Part shown: positions 1,387-16,100 of the stretch, piece after piece
How the letters are laid out: the number at the start of each line of letters is the position of its first letter
Numbering within the stretch: the stretch's first letter is position 1
Assembly (NCBI GenBank): GCA_025350685.1
Contig: JANXXK010000135.1
Location: forward strand, 1-41,103
Reading direction: 5' to 3'
Origin: Alphaproteobacteria bacterium
GTDB lineage: Bacteria > Pseudomonadota > Alphaproteobacteria > Caulobacterales > Caulobacteraceae
Length of the DNA stretch: 41,103 nucleotides
Made by a program: the position numbers and the translations under genes
Notes under the pieces: generated by a model
Told to the model about the DNA's origin: nothing
Database searches by the model: none
Seen by the model: only the letters and a program-made list of their open reading frames with translations

Positions 1387-2679
1387 ATGCACACGGGATT
1401 CATGCGCGCCGTCTTGGCCGCGTCGCTGGCGCTGGGGATCGGCGCCTCGGCCGTCGCCGCGCCCCCCCTCTCCGCGTCCAGGGGCGTCGTCGATCCGAAG
1501 GTCTCCTCGCTGGTCAAGGGCGACCCGGTCACGCTGGGCTTCGACCCGGCCAAGCTGAAGGTGGCCGAGGACGGGCTGAAGGCCGATGTGGCCGCGGGCA
1601 AGCTCGCCGGCGCCTACCTGCTGATCGGCCGCCACGGCAAGATCGCCTTCCAGGAGGGCTTCGGCGCGCAGGGCCCCGGGCAGACGGCCGTGCCCAATGA
1701 GGAATCGATCTTCCGCGTCTTCTCCATGACCAAGCCGATCGTCACGGTGACGGCCATGACCCTGGTGGAGGAAGGCAAGCTCGACCTCGACGCGCCGGTC
1801 TCCAAGTACCTGCCCGAGTACGCGGACTTGAAGGTCTGGCAGGCGGACGGCACGACCAAGCCGGCCACGAAGCCGATGCTGGTCCGCAACCTGATGAGCC
1901 ACACCTCGGGCCTGATCTACGGCTTCATCCAGGCTACCTCGCCGCTGGCCAAAGTCTGGGACGCCGGTGGCGAGAACCGCCAGGACGTGAAGTTGCGCGA
2001 CTACGCGAAGCTCGTCGCCAAGCTGCCGCTCCGCACCGAGCCGGGCGCAGCCTGGTACTATTCGCGCTCCATCGACATCCTGGGCGCGGTCGTCGAGGTC
2101 GCCAGCGGCAAGACCCTGGACGTGGCGGTCAAGGAACGCGTCACCGGCCCTCTGGGGATGACCGACACCGGCTTCTGGCAACCGGCCAGCAGCACGAGCC
2201 GCTTCGACGAGCCGCTGGCCGCCAGCAACCTGCCGGGCATCGGCAACCCCTACTACAACTACACCGTCAAGCCTGTGCAGTTCTCCGGCGGCGGCGGCAT
2301 CTCGTCCACGGCCGAGGACTATCTGCGCTTCGCTCTGATGCTGCAGGGTAGCGGGACCTACAAAGGCGTGCAGATCCTGAAGCCGGAAAGCGTGGCCAAG
2401 ATGCGCGTGGACCAGACCACGCCGGCCATTCGCCAGGCCGGCCTGTTCTTCCCGGGACCCGGCATGGGCTTCGGCCTGGGCGGCTCCGTGGTTATCGATG
2501 ACAAGCTGGCTCGGCCGGGGAACGGCACCTACAGCTGGTGGGGCATCGCCGGCACCGAGTTCTGGGTCGACCCGAAGAACGACCTCTTCATGGTCTTCAT
2601 GATCCAGAACCTGGAGCGGGCCATGGAATACCAGAGGAAGAACCGCGCCTGGATCTACGACGCCCTGGCGAAGCCGTAG
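1387..2679 (+). CDS. Exported class-C beta-lactamase-like serine hydrolase (esterase), copy 1
   Basis: A 430-residue protein. The ATG at 1387 has GGGAGG about 9 bases upstream and gives a signal peptide (MRAVLAASLALGIGASAVAA); an upstream TTG at 1333 in the same frame lacks these. The catalytic SxxK is SMTK (Ser113, Lys116), the Tyr motif is YSRS (Tyr225), and a WWGIAGTEFW segment near the C terminus replaces the KTG box, as in EstB-type esterases of the PF00144 family rather than true AmpC. The likely role is hydrolysis of an ester, amide or lactam in the periplasm. It is a paralogue of the hydrolase at 6295: both share T/SKPIV after the active Ser, an SHTSGL/THTAGL segment with YGF, and a W-x-YS-x-S segment. 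Confidence 0.9.
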   Translation: MHTGFMRAVLAASLALGIGASAVAAPPLSASRGVVDPKVSSLVKGDPVTLGFDPAKLKVAEDGLKADVAAGKLAGAYLLIGRHGKIAFQEGFGAQGPGQTAVPNEESIFRVFSMTKPIVTVTAMTLVEEGKLDLDAPVSKYLPEYADLKVWQADGTTKPATKPMLVRNLMSHTSGLIYGFIQATSPLAKVWDAGGENRQDVKLRDYAKLVAKLPLRTEPGAAWYYSRSIDILGAVVEVASGKTLDVAVKERVTGPLGMTDTGFWQPASSTSRFDEPLAASNLPGIGNPYYNYTVKPVQFSGGGGISSTAEDYLRFALMLQGSGTYKGVQILKPESVAKMRVDQTTPAIRQAGLFFPGPGMGFGLGGSVVIDDKLARPGNGTYSWWGIAGTEFWVDPKNDLFMVFMIQNLERAMEYQRKNRAWIYDALAKP

Positions 2680-2833: not shown

Positions 2834-5134
2834 TCAGATCTTCTTCTTCGCCACCGTCTTCGCCGGCGCACCCTTCAGCGCCGCCAGCACCGCCTTGGGT
2901 CGGATCGGCAGGTCGCGGACCCGCGCGCCGGAGGCGGCGAAGATGGCGTTGCCGATGGCCGGTCCCACAACCGTGGTCGCCGGCTCGCCCAGGCCGACTG
3001 GCGGCTCGGTGCTTTCGACGAAGATCACCTCGATCTCCGGCACGTCGGCCATCCGGAGCGGCGTGTAGCTCGACAGGTTGGTGTCGCGCACCTGGCCGTC
3101 CTGGAACTCAGTGCCCTCGAACAGCGCCAGGCTCATGCCCCACAGCGCCGCGCCCTCCACCTGGGCCTTCGCGCCGTCCGGGCTGACGATGGTGCCGGCG
3201 TCAACCACCAGGGTCAGCTTTTCTACCTTCACCTTGCCGCTGGCCGGATCGACATGGACGCGCGCGGCGCAGGCCGTCCAGGTCGGCATGTCGCGTTCCT
3301 GGCCGAAGCTGGTGGCCATGCCGAGCCCGGTGTTGGCCGGCAGCTTCTTGCCCCAGCCGACCTCCTTGGCCAGCCGCGCGACGACCGCATGCTGGCGCGT
3401 CGCCCCGCCGCGCGCGGTGGGCCCGTCGGCGGCGCCGGAGTTGCGCCCGGCCCCGTCCAGCAGCGAGAGCCGGAAGGCCACCGGGTCCTTGCCCACCGAA
3501 TGGGCCGCCTCGTCCATGAAGCTTTCCAGCGCCCAGTTGGTCCAGCCCGGTCCCACCGAGCGCAGCCAGCCCGGCCGGAAGGTGGCGTTGGCCAGGTCGT
3601 TGCCGACCGCGCGCACCCGCTGCGCGCCGACGCTGTACCAATGGTTCGCGCCATTGATCGCGAAGGGATCGTAGAGCACCCCGTTCGCGCCCTTGGGCAT
3701 GAAGAAGGGGGCCATCGCCTGGGTCGGCCAGCCGGCGCAGGCGGCGTGGTCCATGGCGATTGGTTTGCCGCTTGGCCCGAAGGCCATCTTGACGATCTGG
3801 GTCGAGGCCGAGCGCGGGCTGTCGAAGCGGCTGTCATCGGCCCGCGTGCAGACCATCTTGACCGGCTTGCCGCCGATCGCTTTCGAGGCCAGGGCCGCGC
3901 CGACCGCATAGTCGCCGTTCAGTCGCCGCCCGAAGCCGCCGCCCAGCAGATAGGTGCGGAGCACGATCTTGTCCTCCGGCCGGCCCAGCGCCTTGGAGAG
4001 CCACGGCAACACCAGCGATTGCCACTGATTGCCGGTATGGATCTCGAACATGCCGTCCTTTTCGAAGGCCAGCGCGTTGATCGGCTCCATCTGGAAGTGC
4101 AGGGCTGTCGATGTGGTGTAGGTCGCCGTCAGCGTCGTCTTGGCCCCGGCGAAGGCGGCGTCAACGCCCTTGTCCTCAACCGCCAGTGAGCCGGCCTTGG
4201 GATCGGCCAGCAGGGCCGCGGCGCGGGCCTGCAGGTCGGCCTCGGAGACCTTGGCCCCGGGCCCTGAGGTCCAGGTCACCTTGACCAGGTCGGCCGCCTT
4301 GTTGGCCGCCGGGAAACTGGTCGCATAGACCATCACCCAGCCCGGCACATTGGCCGAGGGATCGTCGAGCGCGATCGAGCGGATGTAGCCGGGCACCGCC
4401 TTGGCGGCGCTGTCGTCGATCGACACGACCGTCGAGTCGTTGCGGGTCGGTGGCAGTTTCGGCCGCGCATAGACCATGCCGTCGACCACCGCATCCAGGC
4501 CATAGTGGGCCGTGCCATTGGTCTTGGCCGGAATGTCGCGTGCGTGGGCCGGCTTGCCGATCAGCCGCCGCTCGGCCGCCGGCTTAATCACCATCTTGGC
4601 CAGCTCCTCGGGCGTATAGCTGCGCTTCAGCTCGCCCTTGGCGACGATGTCGCCATAGCTGATCGACTTGCCGCCGCCCGAGACCACGCCGCCGCGCGCG
4701 GCGCACCCGCTCGCCGGTACGCCCATCAGGCGCGCGCCTTCCTCGACCAGCGCCATGCGCCCCGCGGCCCCCGCCTGGCTATACAGCGGGAAGCTCTGCC
4801 ACACTGACCACGATCCGCCGGTGACCATCAGGCCCCACTTGGGATCGGAATCGACGTGGTCGATCTTCACCTTGGCCCAGTCGACCTCCAGCTCCTCGGC
4901 GACGATGCGGGCAATGGCGGTGCCGACGTGCTGGCCCATCTCGGCGCGGATCACGTGGACGGTGACGGTCCCGTCGCGGTCGATGCCGTACCAGATGGTC
5001 GGCTCGAAGCCCGCGCTAGCGGCGCTCGCCTCAGGCGCGCCGGCGAAGCTGAACAGCAGGCCAGCGGCCGACGAGGCGATCAGGAAGCCTCGGCGTGACG
5101 GCGCGAGTTCGGTGGAGGAGAGATGGCGGTTCAT
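2834..5134 (-). CDS. Molybdopterin-binding large subunit of aldehyde oxidase/isoquinoline 1-oxidoreductase type (IorB-like)
   Basis: A 766-residue protein. The ATG at 5132-5134 overlaps the stop of the iron-sulfur subunit gene (ATGA), and a twin-arginine leader follows ([13 protein letters not shown], Arg14-Arg15), so the folded cofactor-loaded enzyme is probably sent to the periplasm by Tat. The xanthine dehydrogenase/aldehyde oxidase fold is shown by [10 protein letters not shown] in the molybdopterin-binding part and by [18 protein letters not shown] near the C terminus, which carries the catalytic Glu of this family. Length and two-subunit layout match IorB-type enzymes, which pass electrons to cytochromes rather than through an FAD subunit. 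The substrate (N-heterocycle or aldehyde) cannot be told from sequence. No cytochrome or Mo-cofactor chaperone gene lies beside it here. Confidence 0.92.
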
Positions 5135-5592
5135 GCTTTCGCTCCCTCGCCGGCGGCCAGCTTGATGGCCTTTTTGATCCGCACATAGGCCATGCAGCGG
5201 CAGAGGTTGCCGTTCATCGCCGCGTCGATATCGGCGTCGGTCGGGTGCGGCTTGGCCTTCAAGAGCGCCGCGGCCTGCATGATCTGGCCGGACTGGCAGT
5301 AGCCGCACTGCGGCGTCTGCGCCTCGATCCAGGCCTTCTGCAGCGGGTGGTTCCCGCCCGGGTCCAGCCCCTCGATGGTGGTCACCTCGGCGCCGGCCAC
5401 CGACTTCAGCGGCGTGATGCAGCTTCGCACCGCCTTGCCGTTCACATGCACCGTGCAGGCCCCGCAGGCGCCGATGCCGCAACCGAACTTGGAGCCCTTC
5501 AGCCCGATTTCGTCACGGATAACCCAGAGCAGCGGCGTGTCGTCCGCGCTCGTCGGCGACACCTGCCGCCCATTCAGTTGAAACGCCGCCAT
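5131..5592 (-). CDS. (2Fe-2S)-binding small subunit of the molybdenum hydroxylase (IorA-like)
   Basis: A 153-residue protein with the two [2Fe-2S] domains of this family. The N-terminal plant-ferredoxin type domain carries [12 protein letters not shown] with a fourth Cys in VRSC; the C-terminal helical domain carries QCGYC and NLCRC. The ATG at 5590-5592 follows a GGGGGTGGGG stretch; an in-frame GTG three codons upstream is possible but less likely. The subunit carries electrons from the molybdenum centre of the large subunit (next gene, 4-base overlap) to an outside acceptor. It has no signal of its own, so it is probably exported as a complex on the Tat signal of the large subunit. A MarR gene lies 99 bases upstream on the same strand. 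Confidence 0.93.
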
Positions 5593-5691
5593 CAGCCCCA
5601 CCCCCGACCATGTTGTTTGGACAGGAGCGGACGCCAGCGCGAGGGCTCGCGCAACCGTTTTCTTGGTCAGCCCGATCTGTAGACGGCGGGC

Positions 5692-6294: not shown

Positions 6295-7428
6295 ATGCCG
6301 CATGACCTGACCGCCGCCCTTGACCAGGTCATCGACCGCGCGCTTGCCGAGCAGCGGATCGTCGGCGCCCATGTGCTGGTCGCCCGCGACGGGCAGACCG
6401 CCTACGCCCGCGACGCCGGCCTGGCTGACCGCGAGGCTGGCCGGCCCATGGCGGCCGACACCCTCCTGCGGCTGTCCTCGCTCACCAAGCCGATCGTCAC
6501 AGCCGCGGTGCTGGCCCTCGTGGAGGAGGGCGCCATCAGCCTCGACGACCCCGTGACCAAGTGGCTGCCCGATTTCCAACCCCGGATCGGCGGACAGGCG
6601 CCGCCGATCACCGTGCGCCAGCTGCTGACCCATACCGCGGGCCTTTCATACGGCTTCATGCAGCCGGTCGACGGGCCCTACCTCAAGCTCGGCGTCTCCG
6701 ACGGCATGGACCAGCCGGGCCTGGGCTTCGATAAGCAACTGCCGCGTGTCGTCGAGGCCGGCCTGTTCTTCCCGCCAGGCGCGGCCTGGCTCTATTCCGT
6801 CAGCCTCGATGTCCTCGGCGCGGCGCTGGAAGCCGCGACCGGCAAGCCGCTGGGCGAGATCGTCGCCGCCACGGTCACCCGCCCGCTCGGCATGGCCGAC
6901 ACCGGCTTTGCGGTCACCGCCGCCGCCCGCCTGGCAAAACCCTACGTCGATGGCCAGCCTCCGACGATCATGACCGATCCCCAGGTCGCGCCCTTCGCCG
7001 AGCTCTCCGGCATCCGCTATTCTCCCGGCCGCGCCTTCGACCTCAAGTCCTTCCCTTCCGGCGGCGCGGGCATGGTCGGCAATGCCCGGGAGTTCCTGAG
7101 ATTCCTGGAGGCGATCCGCACGGGTGGCGGCGGGATCGTCAGTGAACAGACGGCCAAGGCGATGATGACCAATCAGACCGGCGAGGCGGCGATCGTCACC
7201 AACGGCCCGGGCTTCGGCTTCGGCTTCGGCGGCGCGGTCCTGCTCGACCCCGCGCCGAGCGCCTCGGTTCACTCGCCGGGAACCTGGCTGTGGGGTGGCG
7301 TCTACGGTCACAGCTGGTTCGTCGATCCGGCAAAGAAGATCAGCGCTGTGGTAATGACCAACACCGCCACCGAGGGGATGAGCGGCCAGTTCGCTCAGGA
7401 CGTCGCCGCCGCCGTACAGGCGGCTTAG
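6295..7428 (+). CDS. Class-C beta-lactamase-like serine hydrolase (esterase), copy 2
   Basis: A 377-residue protein. The ATG at 6295 follows GAGGAG at good spacing. Unlike copy 1 at 1387 it has no signal peptide (MPHDLTAALDQVIDRAL), so it probably acts in the cytoplasm. The SxxK motif is SLTK (Ser62, Lys65), the Tyr is in YSVS (Tyr167), and GGVYGHSW near the end takes the place of the KTG box. It belongs to the EstB-like esterases of PF00144; the substrate is unknown. It is transcribed away from the MarR gene with candidate operators between them, so induction by a MarR ligand is plausible. Confidence 0.9.
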   Translation: MPHDLTAALDQVIDRALAEQRIVGAHVLVARDGQTAYARDAGLADREAGRPMAADTLLRLSSLTKPIVTAAVLALVEEGAISLDDPVTKWLPDFQPRIGGQAPPITVRQLLTHTAGLSYGFMQPVDGPYLKLGVSDGMDQPGLGFDKQLPRVVEAGLFFPPGAAWLYSVSLDVLGAALEAATGKPLGEIVAATVTRPLGMADTGFAVTAAARLAKPYVDGQPPTIMTDPQVAPFAELSGIRYSPGRAFDLKSFPSGGAGMVGNAREFLRFLEAIRTGGGGIVSEQTAKAMMTNQTGEAAIVTNGPGFGFGFGGAVLLDPAPSASVHSPGTWLWGGVYGHSWFVDPAKKISAVVMTNTATEGMSGQFAQDVAAAVQAA

Positions 7429-7437
7429 CGGCCCCCC

Positions 7438-7890
7438 TCAGCGCCCGGCGGCGGCCAGGGTCTCCTCCAGGCCCTGCCGGGCGAGCGTGTCGGCGCGTTC
7501 GTTGTATTCGTGGCCGGCGTGGCCCTTCACCCAGCGCCAGTCGACCTCGTGGCGCAGGCGAGCCTCGTCGAGGCGCTTCCAAAGGTCCTCGTTCTTCACC
7601 GGCTTCTTGTCGGCGGTCTTCCAGCCGCGCTGCTTCCAGCTGTGGATCCACTCGCCGATGCCCTTCTGGACATAGGTCGAGTCCGTGTGCAACTCGACCT
7701 TGCAGGGCCGCTTCAGCGCCTCCAGCGCCTGGATCGCGGCCATCATCTCCATGCGGTTGTTGGTGGTCGCAAGCTCCCCGCCGCGCAGTTCCTTCTCCTG
7801 ATCCTTGAAGTGCAGCACCGCCCCCCAGCCGCCGGGGCCCGGATTGCCCGAGCAGGCGCCGTCGGTATGGATCACCACCTGCGGCGTCAT
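7438..7890 (-). CDS. rnhA: Ribonuclease HI
   Basis: A 150-residue protein of normal length for RNase HI, which cuts the RNA strand of RNA-DNA hybrids. The four acidic catalytic residues are in place: Asp10 ([11 protein letters not shown]), Glu48 (NRMEMMAA), Asp70 (HTDSTYV) and Asp134 (NERADTLA), and His124 lies in the flexible loop GHAGH. The ATG at 7888-7890 overlaps the stop of thrB (ATGA), so the two are translationally coupled. The thrB-rnhA pair is common in alphaproteobacteria. Confidence 0.97.
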
Positions 7891-8843
7891 CCGAACAGCA
7901 CCAGGTCCGGCGAGGCGCGGTGCACCGCCAGCTTTCGCTCGTACTCCAGCGGATCCTTCGGACGGACCAGCGCGCCCTGCGGCGTCGCCCCCCAATCGTG
8001 CAGCCGGGTGAGGAAGAACCGCATCGCCGCCCCGTGGGCGAGCACCGGCAGGGCAGATCGTTCGAGGTCAGACAGCTTTCGATGGCTCTCGTAGCCGGCC
8101 ACCAGCTGGCGCGCCGAAGTGATGTTGAAACTGCCGTCCGGCTCGAAGCACCAGGCGTTCAGCGCGATCGCGATGTCATAGGCGAAGGCGTCGACGCAGG
8201 CGAAATAGAAGTCGATGGCCCCGGCGAATTTCCCGTTCGCGAAGAACACATTGTCCGGAAAGAAGTCCGCATGGATCACGCCCGACGGAAGATCTTTCGG
8301 CCAGCGCAAGGCCAATAGTTCGAGATCGGACGATATCGTCGTCGCCAGCCCGGGCTTGAGGCCGTCGGCCGCTTGGCCCAGTCCGGCGAACAGCCCCGCC
8401 CAAGCGCCCTGGCCCAGGTCGTTGAGCCGGCTAAGCGGAAATCCCTGGGCGGCCAGGTGCAGCCGGGCCAGACCCGCGCCCGCCTCCCGGCAATGCGCCG
8501 CGTTGGGCCGCCGAACCGCCAGGCCGGAGAGGAACGAGACGATGGCGCAGGGCTTGCCGCGCACCTCTTTCAGGAGCCGCCCCTCGCGGTCGGGGATCGG
8601 GGTGGCGCTCGGAAAGCCCCGCGCGGCGATCCAGCGCAGCAGTTCCAGGAAGAACGGCAGGTCGTCCGCCCGCACCCGACGCTCATAGACCGTCAGGAAG
8701 TAGCGGCCCGCCTCGGTCTCCAGCAGGAAGTTGGAATTCTCCACGCCTTCGGCCACGCCCTTCAGGCTGAGGGCGTTTCCCAGGTCGAAGTCGGCCAGCA
8801 GCCCGGCCAGTTCCTCGTCGGTGATGTCGGTGTAGACCGCCAT
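7887..8843 (-). CDS. thrB: Homoserine kinase, type II (APH-fold ThrB)
   Basis: A 318-residue protein starting [22 protein letters not shown]. It is the aminoglycoside-phosphotransferase-fold homoserine kinase of proteobacteria, making O-phosphohomoserine for threonine synthesis. The catalytic loop is [13 protein letters not shown] and the metal-binding Asp lies in [29 protein letters not shown] and FLTVYERR at the N terminus are typical ThrB segments. It overlaps rnhA by 4 bases. In many alphaproteobacteria ispH lies directly upstream; here ispH is about 6.2 kb away. Confidence 0.95.
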
Positions 8844-8875
8844 GGCCTGGGATTGGGGGACGCCGCCCGGACGGT

Positions 8876-8908
8876 CAAGTCGACTTGCCGTATTACGTAT
8901 GTTATTAC
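8876..8908. promoter_or_regulatory. Candidate operator of the toxin-antitoxin operon
   Basis: The gap upstream of the antitoxin holds a perfect 12-bp palindrome CAAGTCGACTTG (8876-8887), directly followed by an AT-rich stretch with TATTAC twice, 12 bases apart (8891 and 8903). Antitoxins of the AbrB and Phd types usually repress their own promoter through such sites. No clean sigma-70 hexamer pair could be assigned. Confidence 0.5.
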
Positions 8909-8932
8909 ACCACTGACAAGGAGGCTCGCACC

Positions 8933-9160
8933 ATGATCGCCCTGAAGCTGACCCAGGTAGGCAATTCGGTTGGGGTCGTCCTGCCTAAGGAGGCGCTCGT
9001 AAAGCTGGGCGTCGAAAAGGGCGATCTGCTCTACCTGACCGAATCCGCGCAGGGCGAGATGCGTCTTTCCGCCTACGACCCCAAGGTGGCCGAGGAGATC
9101 GCGCTCGGGGAAAGCTTCATGGACGACTATCGCGACGCCTTCCGCGTCCTGGCGAAGTGA
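8933..9160 (+). CDS. AbrB/MazE-type antitoxin
   Basis: A 75-residue protein. The ATG at 8933 follows AAGGAGG at good spacing; an upstream in-frame start at 8885 lies in the operator region and is unlikely. The N-terminal half (LKLTQVGNSVGVVLPKEALVKLGVEKGDLLYL) is a swapped-hairpin AbrB DNA-binding domain. The C-terminal tail (KVAEEIALGESFMDDYRDAFRVLAK) is an acidic helix of the kind that wraps the toxin. It is the upstream gene of a pair with the Doc-like toxin and overlaps it at GTGA, the usual antitoxin-first order. Confidence 0.93.
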   Translation: MIALKLTQVGNSVGVVLPKEALVKLGVEKGDLLYLTESAQGEMRLSAYDPKVAEEIALGESFMDDYRDAFRVLAK

Positions 9161-9549
9161 GTGTCGAGCCACGCTGGCCGATCCGAGATAGCCTCACCGT
9201 CCTTCACGACAGGAGCATCGCCCTGCATGGCGGCGCGCCAGGTCTGCGCGACGAAGGGCTGCTCGAGTCTGCGCTCGCGCGGGCGGCCAATCGCTTCCAC
9301 TACGAGAATGTCGATGATGTTTGCGAATTGGCGGCGACCTACCTCGTCGCGGTGGCGAGCAACCACCCCTTCGCAGACGGCAACAAGCGCGCGGCGTTCC
9401 TGGCGGCCGGTCTGTTCCTGCGCCTGAACGGCCGCCGGCTGATCGCCGAACAAGCCGACGCTGCACGCGTGGTTCTGGCCGTGGCGGCCGGCCATCGGGA
9501 CCTGCCGCAGATCGCGGAATGGATTAGAAGCCAAACGATCGCGGCCTGA
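9157..9549 (+). CDS. doc: Doc/Fic-family toxin
   Basis: A 130-residue protein starting at a GTG that overlaps the antitoxin stop. The Fic core is HPFADGNKRAAF, which fits the Doc form of the motif. Doc proteins are kinases of elongation factor EF-Tu rather than AMP-transferases, and so stop translation. Helices before the motif (GLRDEGLLESALARAANRFHYENVDDVCELAATYLVAVASN) are typical. With the AbrB-type antitoxin it forms a type II toxin-antitoxin pair. The module sits just next to thrB at the edge of the block that separates thrB from ispH. Confidence 0.93.
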   Translation: MSVEPRWPIRDSLTVLHDRSIALHGGAPGLRDEGLLESALARAANRFHYENVDDVCELAATYLVAVASNHPFADGNKRAAFLAAGLFLRLNGRRLIAEQADAARVVLAVAAGHRDLPQIAEWIRSQTIAA

Positions 9550-9665
9550 CGGCCAGACCGCGCCAGACGCAACGCGCGGCTGCAGAAAAACTGATTTCGC
9601 CGATTCGCCTTGCCGCCCCTAAACGACGACCAGATAGGATAACGACATAATCGGGGGATCCGACC

Positions 9666-10310
9666 ATGAAGCTTCGTCTCGCTGCGGCCTTTGTCGCGGG
9701 CTCCGTCGCGCTCGCCGCCGCGCCGTCCGTCTCGGCCCACTTCATCCTCATGCAGCCGAAAGGCTGGATCGAGGAGAACCAGCTCGGCGATCCCCAGAAG
9801 GCCGGCCCGTGCGGCGGCGTCTCCACCGACCCCGGCAAGGCCACCGGCGTCGTCACCGAGGTCCCCGGCGGCGAACTGCTGCGCCTGAAGGTGCAGGAGA
9901 CTATCTACCACCCCGGCCACTTCCGTGTGGCGCTCGCGGTCCTCGACCGCAAGGAGCTCCCCGTCGATCCGGAAGACGTCACCAAGGACGGCCCGCACGG
10001 TCCGCTGTCGGTCTCCGCCAAGGTCGACCCGAACCCCAAGCCGCCGGTGATCATGGACGGCTTCTGGGACCACCACGTGCGCCAGCCGCGCCAGGTGTTC
10101 GACACCTATGTGCACATCCCCAACATCAACTGCGACCACTGCACCTTGCAGGTGATCCAGTTCATGGAGGAGCACCCGGTCAACAAGGACGGCCGCTTCA
10201 CCTACCACCACTGCGCCGACCTGAAGATTGTCGCCAATCCGCGCCTGCCGATCGACGCCGCCTGGCCCGGCCAGGGCAAGGTGAAGAAGGCCAAGGCCAA
10301 GGCAAGGTGA
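9666..10310 (+). CDS. Secreted LPMO-like copper protein (SCE4755-type), tail frameshifted
   Basis: A 214-residue protein with a clear signal peptide ending SVSA, so that the mature protein begins with His25 (HFILMQPKGW). An N-terminal His after cleavage is the hallmark of the copper histidine brace in lytic polysaccharide monooxygenases; a second brace His could be His85 (YHPGHFRVAL). Cys49, Cys156, Cys159 and Cys183 could form disulfides or bind metal. From memory this resembles the SCE4755 family of polysaccharide monooxygenase-like proteins; substrate and activity are unproven. The C-terminal end is Lys/Ala-rich. A 26-bp tandem duplication (10275-10326) shifts the frame, so the protein stops at 10310 as KAKAR; without the duplication it would end KAKKV. 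A P450 gene follows after 121 bases. Confidence 0.8.
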   Translation: MKLRLAAAFVAGSVALAAAPSVSAHFILMQPKGWIEENQLGDPQKAGPCGGVSTDPGKATGVVTEVPGGELLRLKVQETIYHPGHFRVALAVLDRKELPVDPEDVTKDGPHGPLSVSAKVDPNPKPPVIMDGFWDHHVRQPRQVFDTYVHIPNINCDHCTLQVIQFMEEHPVNKDGRFTYHHCADLKIVANPRLPIDAAWPGQGKVKKAKAKAR

Positions 10311-10326
10311 AGAAGGCCAAGGCCAA
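10275..10326 (+). repeat. Perfect 26-bp tandem duplication at the end of the LPMO-like gene
   Basis: Bases 10275-10300 and 10301-10326 are identical. The unit begins GGCAAGGTGAAGAAGG and ends GGCCAA. Its length is not a multiple of three, so the second copy is read out of frame and the gene stops early in it. Removing one copy restores a continuous Lys/Ala-rich tail ending at the TAG now at 10340-10342. Confidence 0.95.
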
Positions 10327-10359
10327 GGCAAAGAAGGTCTAGAGCCCGCCGCCTCCTTG

Positions 10360-10374
10360 TCGAACGGCGTTCGA
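10360..10374. promoter_or_regulatory. Palindromic operator candidate upstream of the P450 gene
   Basis: TCGAAC-GGC-GTTCGA is a perfect 6-bp-arm palindrome preceded by TTG. A matching site (same arms, also preceded by TTG) lies at 12863-12877 beside the TetR gene. The length and placement fit a TetR-family operator. Confidence 0.65.
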
Positions 10375-10431
10375 AGGCTTCTGGCTAGGCGTTGACGTCC
10401 CTCAGTCGGGCGCACGCGTGGGAGCGAAGCC

Positions 10432-11718
10432 ATGAATATCGCCGTGAAGGTCGATGAGTCGGCGGCCGCCGCCGAGGCCTATGCGACCCCGCTGGCCGAG
10501 CTGAACCCGGCCCACGCCCAGCGCTTCCAGGATGACACCATCTGGCCGGTGTTCGAGCGCCTGCGCCGCGAGGATCCGGTCCACTTCACGCCCGACAGCG
10601 AGTTCGGCCCCTACTGGTCGATCACCAGGTGGGACGACATCATGGCGGTCGACACCGACCATGAAGGCTTCTCCTCGGCCGACGGCATCGCGCTGGCCAA
10701 CCTGCAGGCCATCGAGGAACAGGCCAAGGTGATGGGCGTGCGCCGCCGCGGCGGGGCCGGCTTCATCACCATGGACGAGCCGGAGCACAGCGTGCACCGC
10801 AAGGCCGTCAGCCCGACGGTGGCCCCTTCCAATATCTCGAGCATGGCGCCGGTGGTCCGCGAGCGGGCCGGCCAGATCCTCGACGCCCTGCCGATCGGCG
10901 AGGCGTTCGACTGGGTCGACCTGGTGTCGAAGGAACTGACGGCGATGACGCTTGCCACCCTGTTCGACTTCCCCTTCGAGGATCGCCGCAAGCTGACCTA
11001 CTGGTCCGACATGGTCACCAACATGCCCGGCCACGGCCCGGTGAAGAGCTGGGAGCACAAGGGCCAGGCGATGTTCGAGTGCTTCGGCGCCTTCCAGGAG
11101 CTCTGGAACCAGCGCCTGGACGGCTCGCCCAACCTCGACCTGATCTCCATGCTGACCCAGAATCCGGCCACTCGGACCATGACGATGGAGGAATACCAGG
11201 GCACGGTCATCCTGCTGATCGTCGGCGGCAACGATACGACGCGGAACACCATCTCCGGCAGCATCTATGCGCTGAACAAGAACCCCGCGCAGTACGACAA
11301 GCTGCGCGCCGACCCGGCCCTGATCCCGTCCATGGTCTCCGAGACCATCCGCTACCAGACCCCGCTGGCCCACATGCGCCGGGTCGCGACCCGCGACATC
11401 GAGATCGGCGGCAAGACCATCAAGGCCGGCGACAACGTGGTCATGTGGTATATCTCGGGCAACCGCGACGAGACGGTCATCGAGCGTCCGAACGACTACA
11501 TCATCGACCGCGAACGCTCGCGCCAGCACCTGTCCTTCGGCTTCGGCGTCCACCGCTGCGTCGGCAACCGCGTCGCCGAGATGCAGCTGACCATCATCTG
11601 GGAAGAGATCCTCAAGCGCTTCCCGGTGATCGATCTGGTGGGGGAGCCGGTCCGCAACTACTCGCCCTTCGTGCATGGCTACGAAACCATGCAGGTGATC
11701 ATCCCGGCGCGGGCCTGA
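10432..11718 (+). CDS. Cytochrome P450, CYP153-like
   Basis: A 428-residue soluble bacterial P450. The I-helix oxygen-binding motif is GGNDTT (265-270), the K-helix ExxR is Glu304-Arg307 and the heme-binding loop is FGFGVHRCVG with Cys376. Segments such as FDWVDLVSKELT, LATLFDFPFEDRRKLT, YWSDM and LAHMRR strongly resemble CYP153 alkane and fatty-acid terminal hydroxylases, recalled from known family members; family assignment needs an alignment. CYP153 genes usually travel with a 2Fe-2S ferredoxin and a ferredoxin reductase; neither is here, so electrons must come from partners elsewhere. It is followed after 22 bases by a globin gene, probably in one operon, and preceded by the palindrome at 10360. 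Confidence 0.93.
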   Translation: MNIAVKVDESAAAAEAYATPLAELNPAHAQRFQDDTIWPVFERLRREDPVHFTPDSEFGPYWSITRWDDIMAVDTDHEGFSSADGIALANLQAIEEQAKVMGVRRRGGAGFITMDEPEHSVHRKAVSPTVAPSNISSMAPVVRERAGQILDALPIGEAFDWVDLVSKELTAMTLATLFDFPFEDRRKLTYWSDMVTNMPGHGPVKSWEHKGQAMFECFGAFQELWNQRLDGSPNLDLISMLTQNPATRTMTMEEYQGTVILLIVGGNDTTRNTISGSIYALNKNPAQYDKLRADPALIPSMVSETIRYQTPLAHMRRVATRDIEIGGKTIKAGDNVVMWYISGNRDETVIERPNDYIIDRERSRQHLSFGFGVHRCVGNRVAEMQLTIIWEEILKRFPVIDLVGEPVRNYSPFVHGYETMQVIIPARA

Positions 11719-11740
11719 TCACCGCGCCTGAGTGGCTGCG

Positions 11741-12196
11741 ATGAGTGACCTCAGGCCGACCGATCCCGCCGACGCCGCGGCCGTCGAAGCGAGCCTGGAG
11801 TTGGCCGCCGAGCGCGGCGGCGACCTCTCGCCTGCCGTCTACCAGCGGTTATTCGAACGCCAGCCGGACATGAAGGCGCTGTTCTGGCGCGACGGGAACA
11901 ACGCCATCAAGGGCGAGATGCTGGCCAAGGTGTTCGAGGCGCTGCTCGATTTCATCGGCGAGCGCCACTACGCCCACCATCTGATCGAGACCGAGGTGAT
12001 CACCCACGAGGGCTACGACGTGCCGCGCGGCGTGTTCGCGACCTTCTTCGGCATCGTCGCCGAAGTGGTCCGCCAGGCCTGCGGCGCGGACTGGACCCCG
12101 GCGATGGACGCGGCCTGGCGCCACACGCTCGCCGACCTCGACCACTACGTCGCCCAGCGCGGCCAGGTCGTGAGCACGCCGGAGACCCAGCCCTAG
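11741..12196 (+). CDS. Bacterial globin-like protein
   Basis: A 151-residue protein starting MSDLRPTDPADAAAVEASLEL (ATG at 11741; an in-frame GTG three codons earlier is possible). The A-B helices (SPAVYQRLFERQPDMKALFW) and the segment ITHEGYDVPRGVFATFFGIVAEVV fit a single-domain globin, with His89 as the likely proximal heme ligand. Globins bind oxygen or NO. Coming 22 bases after the P450 gene, it may supply oxygen, remove NO or act as a redox partner; none of this is shown. The gene ends 1 base before the end of the convergent TetR gene. Confidence 0.8.
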   Translation: MSDLRPTDPADAAAVEASLELAAERGGDLSPAVYQRLFERQPDMKALFWRDGNNAIKGEMLAKVFEALLDFIGERHYAHHLIETEVITHEGYDVPRGVFATFFGIVAEVVRQACGADWTPAMDAAWRHTLADLDHYVAQRGQVVSTPETQP

Positions 12197-12197
12197 A

Positions 12198-12779
12198 CTA
12201 CTGCGGGTGGTTGATCAGGTAGTTGAGCCCGCCCCGGAGCTTTGTCGCGAAATCCTCCGGCAGCTGACCGCCGGGATGCGACGAGGTGATCGCCGCGATG
12301 CCGCGCCCCATGGCCCACAGCGCCGTCGCCACATCGGCCTTGTGCGCGGCGGGAAAGCGGCCGTCGGCCTCCACCGCGGCCTGGAAGGCCAGCATGGTCG
12401 CCCGCTCTGCGTCGCGCAGCGCCTCGTGCCGGGTGAGCAGCCGCTCGCTGAACATCACCGAAAACAGCGCCGGGCGCGTCTCGGCGAACCCGAAATAGGC
12501 CCGCGCCCCGGCGGCCAGCGGCGTCGGATAGCCCGGCGTCGCCCGGTTGCGGACGATGTCGGCGCGGAGGTCCTCGAACCCCCTGAGCGCCAGGCTGAGC
12601 AGCAGGTCCTCCTTGCCGGCGAAGTAGTGGTACATGGAGGAGATGCCGATCCCGGCGCTCTCGGCGATGGCGCGCAGGTTGAGCTCCTCCACCCCCTGCG
12701 AGGCGAGAATCGCCGAGGCCGCGTCCAGCGCCTTGGCCTTGACGCTGGCGATCTCGTGCGCGGCTTTCCTCGCTGCCAT
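12198..12779 (-). CDS. TetR-family transcriptional regulator
   Basis: A 193-residue protein. The N-terminal helix-turn-helix is typical (ALDAASAILASQGVEELNLRAIAESAGIGISSMYHYFAGKEDLL). The C-terminal half is a ligand-binding helical domain of no recognised specificity. It is convergent with the P450-globin pair and divergent from the copper monooxygenase gene, with a palindrome in the divergent gap that matches the one before the P450. The simplest reading is a repressor of itself, the monooxygenase and the P450-globin pair. Confidence 0.93.
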   Translation of the reverse strand: MAARKAAHEIASVKAKALDAASAILASQGVEELNLRAIAESAGIGISSMYHYFAGKEDLLLSLALRGFEDLRADIVRNRATPGYPTPLAAGARAYFGFAETRPALFSVMFSERLLTRHEALRDAERATMLAFQAAVEADGRFPAAHKADVATALWAMGRGIAAITSSHPGGQLPEDFATKLRGGLNYLINHPQ

Positions 12780-12844
12780 GGCCTAGCGTCCCGTCGCCCC
12801 CATTCTGCGTATCTAGTCCGGTTTACGCGGCGGCGACCCGAATC

Positions 12845-12877
12845 TGTCAAAGAATTAAGTTGTCGAACACGGTTCGA
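12845..12877. promoter_or_regulatory. TetR operator candidate and minus-strand -35 in the divergent gap
   Basis: TCGAAC-ACG-GTTCGA (12863-12877) is a perfect palindrome with the same arms and the same preceding TTG as the site at 10360. A perfect -35 hexamer TTGACA on the minus strand (12845-12850) lies beside it, facing the TetR gene; its -10 is not clear. Confidence 0.6.
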
Positions 12878-12966
12878 GAGTCGCGATTGGCCTCGCGTCG
12901 AAGCCCTGCCTTTGAGAGCTGTCGCCGCGTCGATGCGGGACCCTTGGGTTCAGGAGAGGACTTCAG

Positions 12967-14964
12967 ATGATGTCTGCGCGACTTGGCGTATTCGGAGCCG
13001 CGGTCAGCGCGCTCATGATCTATGGCTTCGCCTCGAGCCCCGCGACCAATGCGCCCCAGGCGCAGGCCACGGCAGCCGCGCCGGTCGGCAACTTCCTGTT
13101 GGTGGACGCCAACTTCGAGGCCCACGAGCTCTACCGCCTGGGCGAGGCCAAGGCTGTAGTGATCGTCACCCAGGCCAACGGCGACGCGGTGATGCGGGCC
13201 CAGGCCCCGGCGCTGAAGGCGCTCAAGGTGGCCTACGCCGGCAAGGGCGTCGAGCTGATGATGCTCAATTCGAACCTGAAAGACAGCCGCGAGGCGATCC
13301 AGGCCGAGGCCGCCAAGGCCGGCTATGACGCCCCGATCCTGATGGACAGCTACCAGCTGGTCGGCGAGAGCCTGGGCGTCACCCGCTCGGCCGAAGCCAT
13401 CGTCATCGACCCGAAGACCTGGAGCGTCGCCTGGCGCGGCGACGTCGCAGGCGCCGGCAAGGCGGTGGACGCCCTGGTGGCCGGCCACGCCGTGACCGCG
13501 GCCGCCTCGGCCTCCACGGGCGCGCTGATCGACTTCCCGGCCCGCAAGCAGACCGCCCAGCTCACCTATGTGAAGGACGCGGCGCCGATCCTGGAAAAGA
13601 AGTGCGTCGCCTGTCACGAGGAAGGCGGCATCGGCCCGTTCGCCTTGACCAACTATGCGTTGGTCAAGGGCTTCTCGCCGATGATCAAGGAGGTCATCCG
13701 CACCGACCGGATGCCGCCCTTCCACGCCGATCCGCACGTCGGCAAGTTCAGCAACGACCGGCGCCTGACGGCCGACGAGACCAAGACCCTGGTCCACTGG
13801 ATCGAGCAGGGCAGCGTGCGTGGGGAGGGAACCGACCCGCTCGGCGCCAAGCATCTGGTCGCCACCGAATGGCCGCTCGGCAAGCCCGACGTGGTGCTGG
13901 AGGTGCCGAACTACACCATCCCCGCCACCGGCGTGGTCGACTACCAGCACCCCTGGGTCGCCAATCCGCTGACCGCCGGAAAGTGGCTGAAGGCCTCGAC
14001 CATCAAGGTCGACGCCCGCCAGGCCGTGCACCACGTGCTGACCGGCTTCATGGCCGAGGCGCCCAAGCCCGGCCAGCAGGCCTTCGAGAACCGCTGGGGC
14101 GCGTCGGTCGGCAGCTACGCCGTCGGGGCCGAGAGCGAGGTCGCCCCGACCAACGCCGGCACCTACATCCCGCCCGGCGGCGCCATCGGCTTCCAGAACC
14201 ACTACACGCCCTACGGCAAGGAAGTGACCGAGCACACCAAGATCGGCCTCTACTTCTACAAGGATGGCGATGTCCCGGACATCGTGATGCACAACAACCA
14301 GATCGTGAACAACGCGATCGAGCTGCCGCCGTACGACGGCCATCACCAGGAAGTGGCCTACATGGACTTCCCGAAGGACGCGCTGCTCTATTCGGCCTTC
14401 CCGCACGCCCACTATCGCGCCACGTCCTCGGACCTGTGGATCCGCTATCCGGACGGCAAGCAAAAGCTGCTCATCACCCTGCCGCGCTACGACTTCGGCT
14501 GGCAGGGCCACTACAACTTCGCCGAGCCGATCAAGATCCCGGCCGGCTCGAAGCTGATCGCCCACTACGTCTACGACAACTCCAAGAGCAACCCGCACAA
14601 CCCCGACCCCAGCAAGACCGTGGTCTGGGGCGAACAGTCCTGGGAGGAGATGTTCTTCACCCGCATCCGCTACCGCTGGATGGACGAGACCTCCAAGCAC
14701 CTCGTCAACTATGACGATGCCCTGGAGCAGGGCGCGCTGATGGGCATGCTGGATAGCAACATGGACGGCAAGATCCAGAAGTCCGAGCTGAAGGGCCAGA
14801 TCGGCGCCATGCTGCTCGGCAAGTGGGACATCATCGACGCCAACCACGACGGCGTCATCGATGCGAACGAGCTCGCCGCGGCCCAGAAGATGATGGGTGG
14901 CGGCCACCGCCACGAGGAAGCCGCCGCGCCCGCAGCGAGCGCCCCCGCGGCCGGCGGCAAGTAA
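12967..14964 (+). CDS. Secreted redoxin-cytochrome c-PHM-like copper monooxygenase-EF-hand fusion
   Basis: A 665-residue protein with an N-terminal export signal and AGGAGAGGA upstream. Four parts can be seen. Residues 40-175 have an AhpC/thioredoxin-like fold without the usual active Cys. Residues 205-280 form a cytochrome c module with CVACH (213-217) and Met249 (DRMPPFH) as likely axial ligand. Residues 300-570 resemble type II ascorbate-dependent copper monooxygenases (PHM/DBM): His355-His356 and His412 (QNHY) for one copper, His480-x-His482 and Met562 (WEEM) for the other. Two EF-hand loops follow (596-607 and 624-635), then an Ala-rich tail. The fused cytochrome may feed electrons in place of ascorbate. 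It probably hydroxylates a small molecule in the periplasm; the substrate is unknown. A terminator follows. Confidence 0.88.
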   Translation: MMSARLGVFGAAVSALMIYGFASSPATNAPQAQATAAAPVGNFLLVDANFEAHELYRLGEAKAVVIVTQANGDAVMRAQAPALKALKVAYAGKGVELMMLNSNLKDSREAIQAEAAKAGYDAPILMDSYQLVGESLGVTRSAEAIVIDPKTWSVAWRGDVAGAGKAVDALVAGHAVTAAASASTGALIDFPARKQTAQLTYVKDAAPILEKKCVACHEEGGIGPFALTNYALVKGFSPMIKEVIRTDRMPPFHADPHVGKFSNDRRLTADETKTLVHWIEQGSVRGEGTDPLGAKHLVATEWPLGKPDVVLEVPNYTIPATGVVDYQHPWVANPLTAGKWLKASTIKVDARQAVHHVLTGFMAEAPKPGQQAFENRWGASVGSYAVGAESEVAPTNAGTYIPPGGAIGFQNHYTPYGKEVTEHTKIGLYFYKDGDVPDIVMHNNQIVNNAIELPPYDGHHQEVAYMDFPKDALLYSAFPHAHYRATSSDLWIRYPDGKQKLLITLPRYDFGWQGHYNFAEPIKIPAGSKLIAHYVYDNSKSNPHNPDPSKTVVWGEQSWEEMFFTRIRYRWMDETSKHLVNYDDALEQGALMGMLDSNMDGKIQKSELKGQIGAMLLGKWDIIDANHDGVIDANELAAAQKMMGGGHRHEEAAAPAASAPAAGGK

Positions 14965-14987
14965 TCCGCCCGCACGCGACCTGAATG

Positions 14988-15020
14988 AGGCCCGGCGCTC
15001 ACAAGGCGCTGGGCCTTTTT
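14988..15020 (+). terminator. Rho-independent terminator after the copper monooxygenase gene
   Basis: AGGCCCGGCGC (14988-14998) pairs with GCGCTGGGCCT (15006-15016), an 11-bp stem with one G-T pair, followed by a run of T to 15020. It ends just before the stop of the convergent ispH gene. Confidence 0.9.
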
Positions 15021-15021
15021 C

Positions 15022-15975
15022 CTAGGCCAGAACCCGCGGCAGCTTGAAGGTCACGGTCTCGCGCGCCGCGTCGATCTCCTCGACCGTGACGTCAAAGGTC
15101 GCGCCAAGCCGGTCGATGAGCCCCTGCACCAGCACCTCCGGCGCCGAGGCCCCCGCCGTCACCCCGACCACGCCCACGCCCTTCAGCCAGGCCAGGTCCA
15201 GTCCGTCGGCGTCATCGATCAGATAGGCGGCCGATCCAGCCCGCCGGGCCACTTCGGCAAGTCTGACCGAGTTGGACGAATTGGCGCTGCCCAGCACCAG
15301 CAGCACCTGGCTCCTCGCGGCGACCTGCTTGACCGCCTCCTGGCGGTTGGTGGTGGCGTAGCAGATGTCTTCCTTGTGCGGCGCGGCGATGGCCGGGAAC
15401 CGGGCGCGCAGCGCAGCGACGATCTCGGCGGTGTCGTCCACTGACAGCGTCGTCTGGGTGACAAATGCGACATTGGCCGCGTCGCGGGGGACGAAGCTTT
15501 CGGCGTCCGACACGGTCTCGATCAGGGCCACCGCGCCTTCCGGCAGCTGACCCATGGTGCCCACCACTTCGGGGTGGCCGGCGTGGCCGATCAGCACGAT
15601 CTCGCGCCCGGCGTCGAAGTGGCGGCCGGCCTCCACATGAACCTTGGAGACCAGCGGGCAGGTGGCGTCGAGGAAGAGCATCTTGCGGCTCTTCGCCTCC
15701 GCCGGCACGGCCTTGGGCACCCCGTGGGCGGAGAACACCACCGGCCGGTCGGCGGGGCACTCGTCCAACTCCTCGACGAACACCGCGCCCAGGGCCTTCA
15801 GCCGCTCCACCACGTGGCGGTTGTGGACGATCTCGTGGCGCACATAGACCGGCGCCCCGTACTTGCCGATCGCCCGCTCGACGATCTGGATCGCCCGGTC
15901 GACGCCGGCGCAGAACCCGCGCGGGGTGGCCAGCAGGACGGTCAGCGGTGGGCGATGTGGGGCGGGTTGCGACAT
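15022..15975 (-). CDS. ispH: 4-hydroxy-3-methylbut-2-enyl diphosphate reductase (IspH/LytB)
   Basis: A 317-residue protein starting [25 protein letters not shown]; a longer frame upstream is Arg-rich and not conserved. It makes isopentenyl and dimethylallyl diphosphate in the last step of the MEP isoprenoid pathway with a [4Fe-4S] cluster. The three cluster cysteines are Cys22, Cys106 (DATCP) and Cys205 ([11 protein letters not shown]). Substrate-binding His51, His84 and His134 and catalytic Glu136 ([10 protein letters not shown]) are present. It is divergent from the exported protein at 16101 and no longer adjacent to thrB. Confidence 0.97.
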
Positions 15976-16100
15976 TGCGCGCAACCTAAGGGGTCTGCCC
16001 CGTGGCCGCCAGCCGCGTTGCCGCCGCATTCTCCAGGCTGTACTAGGGCGGCATCCGCGCGCGGTCCTTCGCGCGCAAACCAGTTACACGGACGCCCGCC

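What the first reader, a model, noticed from the sequence alone, without database searches (positions are those of the whole stretch)
9666..14964. TetR-linked copper/heme oxidation island: LPMO-like, CYP153-like P450, globin and a four-domain dicopper monooxygenase
Three different oxygen-activating enzyme types (an N-terminal-His copper protein, a P450, and a PHM-like monooxygenase fused to a cytochrome c) plus a globin lie within 5.3 kb around one TetR gene. The domains are seen directly through their motifs. That they act on one substrate or pathway is inference. No ferredoxin or reductase for the P450 is present, which leaves open whether globin or the exported cytochrome module takes part.
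Basis: partly seen in the sequence, partly recalled or inferred. Interest (0 to 1): 0.75.

Follow-up and report, generated by a model that had tools for sequence, protein, structure and literature searches.

The report
Oxygenase genes gathered beside one repressor
One bacterial chromosome slot holds a P450 gene with a globin gene and a likely repressor, and beside them two separately evolving copper-protein genes; the repressor's predicted DNA switch and the self-wired copper enzyme family are the parts worth following, not the cluster as a whole.

Summary
They are not one conserved island. Three units sit in a variable slot between thrB and ispH.

(1) A CYP153-type P450, a globin after it, and a convergent TetR gene. 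Homologues of this TetR often lie beside CYP153 genes. A palindrome, CTTGTnGAACnnnGTTCGAAG, 55 bp before the P450 recurs in all five sampled genomes with a close TetR (44% identity or more), mostly before CYP153, aldehyde dehydrogenase, acyl-CoA dehydrogenase or TonB-receptor/transporter genes. I read TetR as a repressor of CYP153-type aliphatic catabolism.

(2) A TetR-divergent gene for an exported protein: degenerate thioredoxin-like fold, haem c, PHM/DBH-type dicopper domain with all six ligands, EF hands. It has up to eight or more paralogues per genome, which do not travel with the P450. A weak second operator lies in the TetR–fusion promoter; co-control is possible, unproved.

(3) An orphan LPMO-like SCE4755 gene without the operator.

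"One substrate or pathway" is not supported. The TetR–CYP153 operator system and the haem-c-wired dicopper family would be new variants of known kinds. No function was tested.

The parts
7887..8843 (-). thrB (homoserine kinase), left border of the variable slot
   Evidence: TIGR00938, 418.9 bits; within 1.2 kb of ispH in 24 of 29 other loci examined
8885..9549 (+). Phd-like antitoxin (8885-9160) and Doc toxin (9157-9549); slot cargo, not part of the oxidation genes
   Evidence: TIGR02609 and TIGR01550 above cut-off; phd-doc or doc at the same junction in L314, L317, L320
9666..10310 (+). SCE4755-family LPMO-like exported protein; mature N-terminus expected at His25 (by eye)
   Evidence: NF043005 over cut-off; His25 and Phe26 in 80 of 80 related ORFs, no motif filter; AF2 pLDDT 89.6; Foldseek LPMO hits
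10356..10376 (+). O1, predicted TetR operator CTTGTCGAACGGCGTTCGAAG, 55 bp before the P450 ATG; only exact match to the pattern in the genome
10432..11718 (+). CYP153-type cytochrome P450
   Evidence: PF00067; CYP153A7 chain 3rwl, 512 bits; 7 matches in this genome at E<=1e-100
11732..12196 (+). single-domain globin, 13 bp (GTG) or 22 bp (ATG) after the P450, probably the same transcript
   Evidence: PF00042; CYP153-like gene within 1.5 kb in 5 of 29 other globin loci, and in a sixth, G067, whose flank was too short to show it (L188)
12198..12779 (-). TetR regulator, convergent with the globin
   Evidence: PF00440, PF13305; CYP153 within 1.5 kb in 7 of 19 homologous loci, one per genome
12859..12879 (+). 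O2, weaker operator-like site (3 mismatches to the 21-mer) between the divergent TetR and fusion starts
   Evidence: chance of such a site in this 187-bp gap about 3e-4
12967..14964 (+). four-domain protein with an N-terminal signal-like stretch: thioredoxin-like, haem c, PHM/DBH-type dicopper, EF hands
13087..13419 (+). thioredoxin-like domain (residues 41-151); the Cys position (73) is Asp here, Cys in 21 of 62 copies
   Evidence: PF00578 26.2 bits, cut-off 26
13564..13812 (+). cytochrome c domain (about residues 200-282): C213xxC216H217, Met239 and Met249 in 62 of 62
   Evidence: PF13442 at E<=1 in 45 of 47
13864..14706 (+). dicopper monooxygenase domain (about residues 300-580): H355, H356, H412, H480, H482 in 62 of 62; M562 in 61 of 62 (a gap in the other)
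14728..14901 (+). EF-hand pair
   Evidence: PF13202, two stretches
15022..16029 (-). ispH, right border of the variable slot
   Evidence: NF002190, 483.1 bits

Best explanation
The stretch is a composite of three units in a gene-gain slot between thrB and ispH. The core is an inducible CYP153 module: TetR binds the palindrome O1 and represses the P450-globin transcript until a ligand (substrate or an acyl-CoA-type product) releases it, and TetR limits itself through O2. The P450 hydroxylates an aliphatic or terpenoid compound. Its ferredoxin and reductase come from elsewhere in the genome, and the globin supplies O2 or protects the haem from NO. The fusion gene beside TetR encodes an exported monooxygenase in which the fused haem c passes electrons to the PHM-type copper pair, in the role that ascorbate has in PHM and DBH. 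It belongs to a separately expanding paralogous family and may or may not be under O2. The LPMO-like protein is an independent orphan gene. Shown: domains, ligands, neighbourhoods, motif distribution. Inferred: repression, ligand, reactions, export, electron path, globin role.
For: TetR and CYP153: 7 of 19 TetR-homologue loci have a CYP153 within 1.5 kb; taking five CYP153 per 4 Mb, chance is about 0.6% per locus, P about 1.5e-11, relatedness ignored. Operator: at one mismatch or fewer it occurs 9 times in 149 genomes (reversed-pattern control 4). It is in 5 of 5 genomes with a TetR match of 44% or more and in 2 of the other 144; P 3.7e-8, or 6e-4 without the three genomes used to write the motif. 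Of the 9 sites, 4 precede CYP153 (own, G111, G047, G123), 1 an aldehyde dehydrogenase and 1 an operon with an acyl-CoA dehydrogenase (G098), 1 lies between a TonB receptor and an MFS-like gene (G088; the TonB gene was scanned, the other assigned by its likeness to the scanned G098 gene), and 2 have no informative neighbour (G098, G053). Two-mismatch sites lie at the start of an acyl-CoA synthetase-dehydrogenase operon (G111) and before an MFS gene (G098). P450-globin: homologous pair abutting in G132; pairs within 1.5 kb in G044, G051, G067, G079, G084. Fusion: PHM/DBH fold and ligands. Slot: thrB and ispH adjacent (81-248 bp) in L315, L316, L319; phd-doc or doc in L314, L317, L320; SCE alone in L206.
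Against: The best P450 orthologue in each of 29 other genomes (74-81%) shows neither this TetR within its 1.5-kb flank nor the operator at one mismatch or fewer; 8 of 13 orthologue regions fetched at greater length have a different TetR nearby. So the pairing is not old for this P450. G098's 77% P450 lies in the operator cluster but has no site (two mismatches or fewer) directly before it. O2 has 3 mismatches, and at that level the genome holds about as many sites as the control pattern (8 against 7). G098 and G088 TetR-upstream stretches were in view before the motif was fixed, so the out-of-sample test is not wholly clean. The G132 globin beside the P450 has in-frame stops and looks decayed. 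Several P450-globin cases come from close relatives, so independent events number about three. No binding, expression or activity data exist.
Confidence: 0.6

Rival explanations
1. One pathway: all oxygenases of the block act in turn on one substrate under one TetR.
For: Physical grouping; O1 and O2 both present; SCE-bearing genomes tend to carry fusion genes (5 of 7, against 21 of 149 overall, P 6e-4, relatedness ignored).
Against: No other sampled genome groups them: 1 of 61 other fusion copies has a CYP153 nearby; 0 of 80 SCE loci show the globin or this TetR. No operator-like site before SCE (the window has only O1 and O2). The enzymes probably sit in different compartments (inference).
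Confidence: 0.08
2. TetR controls the P450-globin pair and also the fusion gene through O2 (two oxygenases, not a pathway), so a cytosolic and an exported oxygenase answer the same ligand.
For: O2 lies mid-way in the shared divergent promoter; chance for that place about 3e-4. Other fusion paralogues have a divergent TetR of another subfamily with their own conserved palindrome (L033, L038, L047, L051).
Against: O2 may serve TetR autoregulation only. The nearest fusion orthologue (G118, 81%) has no TetR detected beside it. No operator site at 2 mismatches or fewer in the 969 kb of fusion neighbourhoods. O2 is weak.
Confidence: 0.3
3. The fusion protein is not a monooxygenase but a copper/haem sensor or periplasmic redox carrier using a retired PHM fold.
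For: The thioredoxin-like domain lacks its Cys in 41 of 62 copies, window included, one of them a gap; no substrate known.
Against: The six copper ligands and CxxCH are kept in 62 of 62 copies but for one gap at the Met, at 37-83% identity to the window protein among the 46 others aligned, which points to a working active site.
Confidence: 0.1

Closest known systems
CYP153 alkane/terpene hydroxylase operons (CYP153A7; fdx-cyp-fdr clusters)
   Same: P450 sequence (512 bits to the CYP153A7 chain); operator-linked genes in relatives fit aliphatic catabolism
   Different: No P450-type ferredoxin seen in the window (reductases not searched); a globin follows; the predicted regulator is TetR. The CYP153 regulators characterised in the review PMC8784404 (passages read) are AraC-type CypR; a TetR lies near the CYP153 cluster of strain NBB4 there, but AraC is taken as its regulator
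AlkX of Dietzia (TetR repressor of alkW1; PMC8784404 and PMC12472514, passages read)
   Same: TetR next to an alkane-type monooxygenase, presumed ligand release
   Different: AlkX controls an AlkB-type enzyme; sequence relation not tested; the operator here is derived from Caulobacteraceae
PHM / dopamine beta-hydroxylase (Cu2 type II, ascorbate-dependent)
   Same: Fold (3mll E 1.5e-12, 4zel E 4e-12; TM by target 0.36-0.67) and six ligands
   Different: Fused to haem c, a degenerate thioredoxin-like domain and EF hands; bacterial, multicopy; about 11-16% identity in the Foldseek rows
SCE4755 family / LPMOs / BIM1-like
   Same: His expected at the mature N-terminus; LPMO-like fold at low TM-score (about 0.3-0.44); NF043005 over cut-off
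   Different: Extra invariant Cys and His; PF20238 BIM1-like below cut-off; activity unknown

Membership tests
CYP153 | Sequence close to named CYP153 members | tested here: met
   512.4 bits over 411 residues to the chain named CYP153A7; percent identity not computed. NCBIfam's nearest model, SolI, is below its cut-off (645.8 of 850)
CYP153 | Heme-thiolate signature | tested here: met
   FGFGVHRCVG in the translation, aligned with CYP153A7
CYP153 | Ferredoxin and reductase encoded alongside | tested here: not met
   Only a Fer2+Fer2_2 protein in the window; other Fer2 matches on other contigs; reductase not searched. Common in known operons, not essential for family membership
CYP153 | Terminal hydroxylation of aliphatics | not testable with these tools
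   No assay
PHM/DBH dicopper monooxygenases | CuH (three His) and CuM (two His, one Met) ligands | tested here: met
   H355, H356, H412, H480, H482 in 62 of 62 and M562 in 61 of 62; assignment to CuH/CuM is recalled from PHM
PHM/DBH dicopper monooxygenases | Two-domain fold | tested here: met
   AF2 pLDDT 87.3; first 30 Foldseek rows are PHM or DBH
PHM/DBH dicopper monooxygenases | Pfam Cu2_monoox models | tested here: inconclusive
   Window protein: none at E<=1; PF03712 at E<=1 in 44 of 47 members; PF01082 not among the 25 families shown of 27. A profile of the 47 did not list PHM among the 60 PDB rows shown of 481
PHM/DBH dicopper monooxygenases | Ascorbate-dependent hydroxylation | not testable with these tools
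   No assay
SCE4755 family | NF043005 above curated cut-off | tested here: met
   122.5 bits, cut-off 75
LPMO | N-terminal His available as copper ligand | tested here: met
   His25-Phe26 in 80 of 80; cleavage site judged by eye, no predictor run
LPMO | His-brace geometry with a second His | not tested
LPMO | Oxidative polysaccharide cleavage | not testable with these tools
   No assay
Globin | Pfam Globin over cut-off | tested here: met
   33.1 bits, cut-off 22
Conserved five-gene island | Genes travel together in other genomes | tested here: not met

The most novel reading that the evidence does not exclude
Phenylobacterium and near relatives have evolved a lineage-expanded family (eight or more paralogues in some genomes) of exported dicopper monooxygenases that carry their own haem c as built-in electron donor instead of ascorbate, several of them tuned by their own TetR switch. 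In this genome one of them has been wired, through O2, to the repressor of a cytosolic CYP153-globin operon, so that one ligand would induce an outer and an inner oxygenase together.
Probability: 0.2. Interest if true: 0.75.

Novelty: new variant of a known kind. Interest (0 to 1): 0.45.

Why it matters
A TetR-type switch with a defined operator for CYP153 genes would be directly testable and usable as an alkane/terpene sensor; the passages read name AraC-type regulators for CYP153 (PMC8784404, PMC12472514). PHM and DBH are known mainly from animals with ascorbate as donor (recalled). A multicopy bacterial family with haem c fused to the copper domain offers a simple system to ask how electrons reach the copper pair. 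The work also shows that a striking cluster can be a slot effect.

Tried and rejected
One-island reading: rejected on neighbourhood counts. Fusion as plasmid cargo: no hit in 72,556 plasmid records at E<=1e-20. Fusion spread over Pseudomonadota: 2 of 299 genomes, the own and one of its genus, at E<=1e-30, four candidates scored per genome. In the family, 30 of 149 were reported and I dropped nine whose matches are EF-hand only, leaving 21; eight candidates per genome were scored, so eight copies is a lower bound. SCE4755 as a gene with fixed partners: what recurred near 80 loci was SCE itself, ORFs overlapping it, and contexts shared by five to eight loci, largely related ones. A cytochrome c/PHM-like ORF is beside SCE in L252 and about 5 kb away in L241; a distant P450 (27%) is in L248. 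SCE in the class: 1 of 289, the own genome. In the family 8 of 149 reported; I dropped G122 (48 residues, E 9.8e-4) and count G118 as a fragment. The three 2-mismatch sites in the own genome had no telling neighbours by eye. The weak XopAW match of the fusion (19.4 bits, cut-off 120) is EF-hand similarity only. A first count of the SCE N-terminus had kept only ORFs with the motif AH[FYW] and a fitting start (69 of 80), so it was circular; it is replaced by the unfiltered count. TetR genes near fusion copies were found with a profile built from the window TetR and two neighbouring clusters, so others may be missed. Paper searches: no paper in the library holds CYP153, globin and operon together or SCE4755. 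The rows listed for the fusion or PHM searches and for CYP153 show no title on this system; several lists were cut (for example 15 of 299), and the library lacks most subscription journals. Titles and abstract starts were seen; beyond these only passages of PMC8197338, PMC8784404 and PMC12472514.
Full report
Observation. The five ORFs are real and correctly placed. Family scans give SCE4755 LPMO-like, P450, globin, TetR and AhpC/TSA–cytochrome c–EF-hand. The P450 is closest to CYP153 chains. The dicopper part of the fusion is not seen by Pfam in the window protein, but PF03712 appears at E<=1 in 44 of 47 aligned members. The AF2 model (mean pLDDT 87.3) gives PHM and DBH as the first 30 Foldseek rows. 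The six expected copper ligands and CxxCH are kept across 62 gene copies, with one gap at the Met. The genus is probably Phenylobacterium: a same-genus genome's contig (G108:C109) has the length and the match of a record named Phenylobacterium deserti (L208), and the nearest SCE hit is from Phenylobacterium sp. (L201). This is inference.

Is it one unit? I searched 149 Caulobacteraceae genomes with each gene. The fusion is in 21 genomes (30 reported, nine of them EF-hand only), in up to eight copies with eight candidates scored per genome; the own genome has five matches, one a piece at a contig end. I fetched stretches around the copies; 62 gene copies in 59 stretches resulted, the window's included. 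One other copy (L050) has a CYP153 nearby, and none of the others has an SCE, globin or close TetR match. Some stretches are short contigs. SCE is rare: 8 of 149 reported, one of them spurious and one a fragment, and 1 of 289 (the own genome) in a class-wide sample. Of the 80 SCE loci kept from 152 in public genomes, none shows the globin or this TetR, one has a CYP153-like gene (L204, 53%) and one a distant P450 (L248, 27%). The five genes do not travel together.

The slot. thrB lies within 1.2 kb of ispH in 24 of 29 other ispH loci, those being the best matches of 80 genus genomes; in the window the gap is 6.2 kb. Ten junction regions were fetched, with L203 and L206 added. thrB and ispH are adjacent in L315 (apparently the same contig as L203, by its length), L316 and L319. 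phd-doc or doc is there in L314 (with two more genes), L317 and L320; SCE alone in L206; unrelated genes in L312; two small ORFs in L318. In L311 and L313 thrB was not found on the stretch. In L203 SCE sits two genes beyond thrB. The window's block is one filling of a variable slot.

The TetR–CYP153 module. TetR homologues (21 of 149 genomes at E<=1e-15) lie within 1.5 kb of a CYP153 in 7 of 19 non-self loci. In G111 and G047 the TetR is convergent with a CYP153 and abuts it, as here with the globin in between. The P450 promoter holds a palindrome, and the same motif stands before CYP153 in those two genomes. The motif was written after seeing these three loci. Background in 969 kb of fusion neighbourhoods: no site at two mismatches or fewer. 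In 149 genomes at one mismatch or fewer there are nine sites (reversed control four): in 5 of 5 genomes with a TetR match of 44% or more, plus G123 and G053. Beyond the three source loci, sites precede an aldehyde dehydrogenase and an operon with an acyl-CoA dehydrogenase (G098), lie between a TonB receptor and a transporter-like gene (G088), and precede a CYP153 (G123); one G098 site and the G053 site have no informative neighbour. Two-mismatch sites lie at the start of an acyl-CoA synthetase–dehydrogenase operon (G111) and before a transporter (G098). This looks like an uptake, hydroxylation and acyl-CoA route. Against it: the best P450 orthologue of each of 29 other genomes carries neither this TetR nor the site in its 1.5-kb flanks, and G098's 77% orthologue has no site directly before it.

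The globin. It follows the P450 by 13 or 22 bp, depending on its start. Among 29 other globin loci five have a CYP153-like gene within 1.5 kb, and G067 is a sixth at 1.4 kb (L188). At least three of the six genomes share one layout (L188, L193, L196), so independent events are about three. The abutting G132 copy contains in-frame stops and looks decayed. A role in oxygen supply or NO protection is inference.

The fusion and TetR. O2 lies between the divergent TetR and fusion starts. With three mismatches it is ordinary genome-wide (8 sites against 7 control), but its place is unlikely by chance (about 3e-4). The family is elsewhere sometimes near TetR genes: 13 of 62 copies within three genes, 8 of 62 as immediate neighbours, window included. 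In L033, L038, L047 and L051 a different TetR is divergent from the fusion and a shared stretch, GTTACGAT-N9-ATCATAAC in its best form, lies between. Seven of 62 copies have a same-strand neighbour from a cluster of PQQ dehydrogenases; two cluster members were scanned. These hints fit an inducible exported hydroxylase whose product an outer dehydrogenase oxidises; none is proof.

The SCE gene. His25 and Phe26 are in 80 of 80 related ORFs without any motif filter, as are His82, His170, His181, His182 and four Cys. Two short stretches of the protein were used to find the loci, so part of that conservation (around Cys49 and His82) is by construction. The model's best PDB matches are LPMOs at low TM-score.

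Verdict. The enzymes are as described. The island is not a conserved unit. The best-supported mechanism is a TetR-repressed CYP153–globin operon beside an independent haem-c-wired dicopper enzyme and an orphan LPMO-like gene.

Noticed in passing
window 8843-15022; L311-L320, L203, L206: The thrB-ispH junction is a variable-gene slot in the genus (adjacent genes, doc or phd-doc, SCE, other cargo).
   Followed up: partly
L033, L038, L047, L051 between TetR and fusion gene: A conserved palindrome-like stretch GTTACGAT-N9-ATCATAAC between a second TetR subfamily and divergent fusion paralogues.
   Followed up: partly
L033, L038, L051, L064, L070, L084: PQQ-dehydrogenase cluster gene as same-strand neighbour of seven fusion copies.
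   Followed up: partly
L069:15068-17074, L059:10696-12942: Type II topoisomerase subunit genes (gyrase B and topoisomerase IV/gyrase A type) beside fusion copies in two genomes of one genus.
   Followed up: no
L168:10119-10292: The nearest P450 orthologue (G118, 81%) has a Fer2 ferredoxin about 700 bp downstream, cut by the contig end.
   Followed up: partly
L252:442-1995: A cytochrome c/PHM-like ORF (by the fusion profile; no Pfam hit) directly upstream of an SCE4755 gene in a Gemmatimonadetes MAG, same strand.
   Followed up: partly
window 2834-5601: Molybdopterin-binding large subunit and a Fer2+Fer2_2 small subunit pair.
   Followed up: no
window 1387-2679 and 6295-7428: Two PF00144 (beta-lactamase/esterase fold) genes.
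   Followed up: no
L167:911-1330: Globin homologue abutting a CYP153 in G132 carries in-frame stops; looks decayed.
   Followed up: partly
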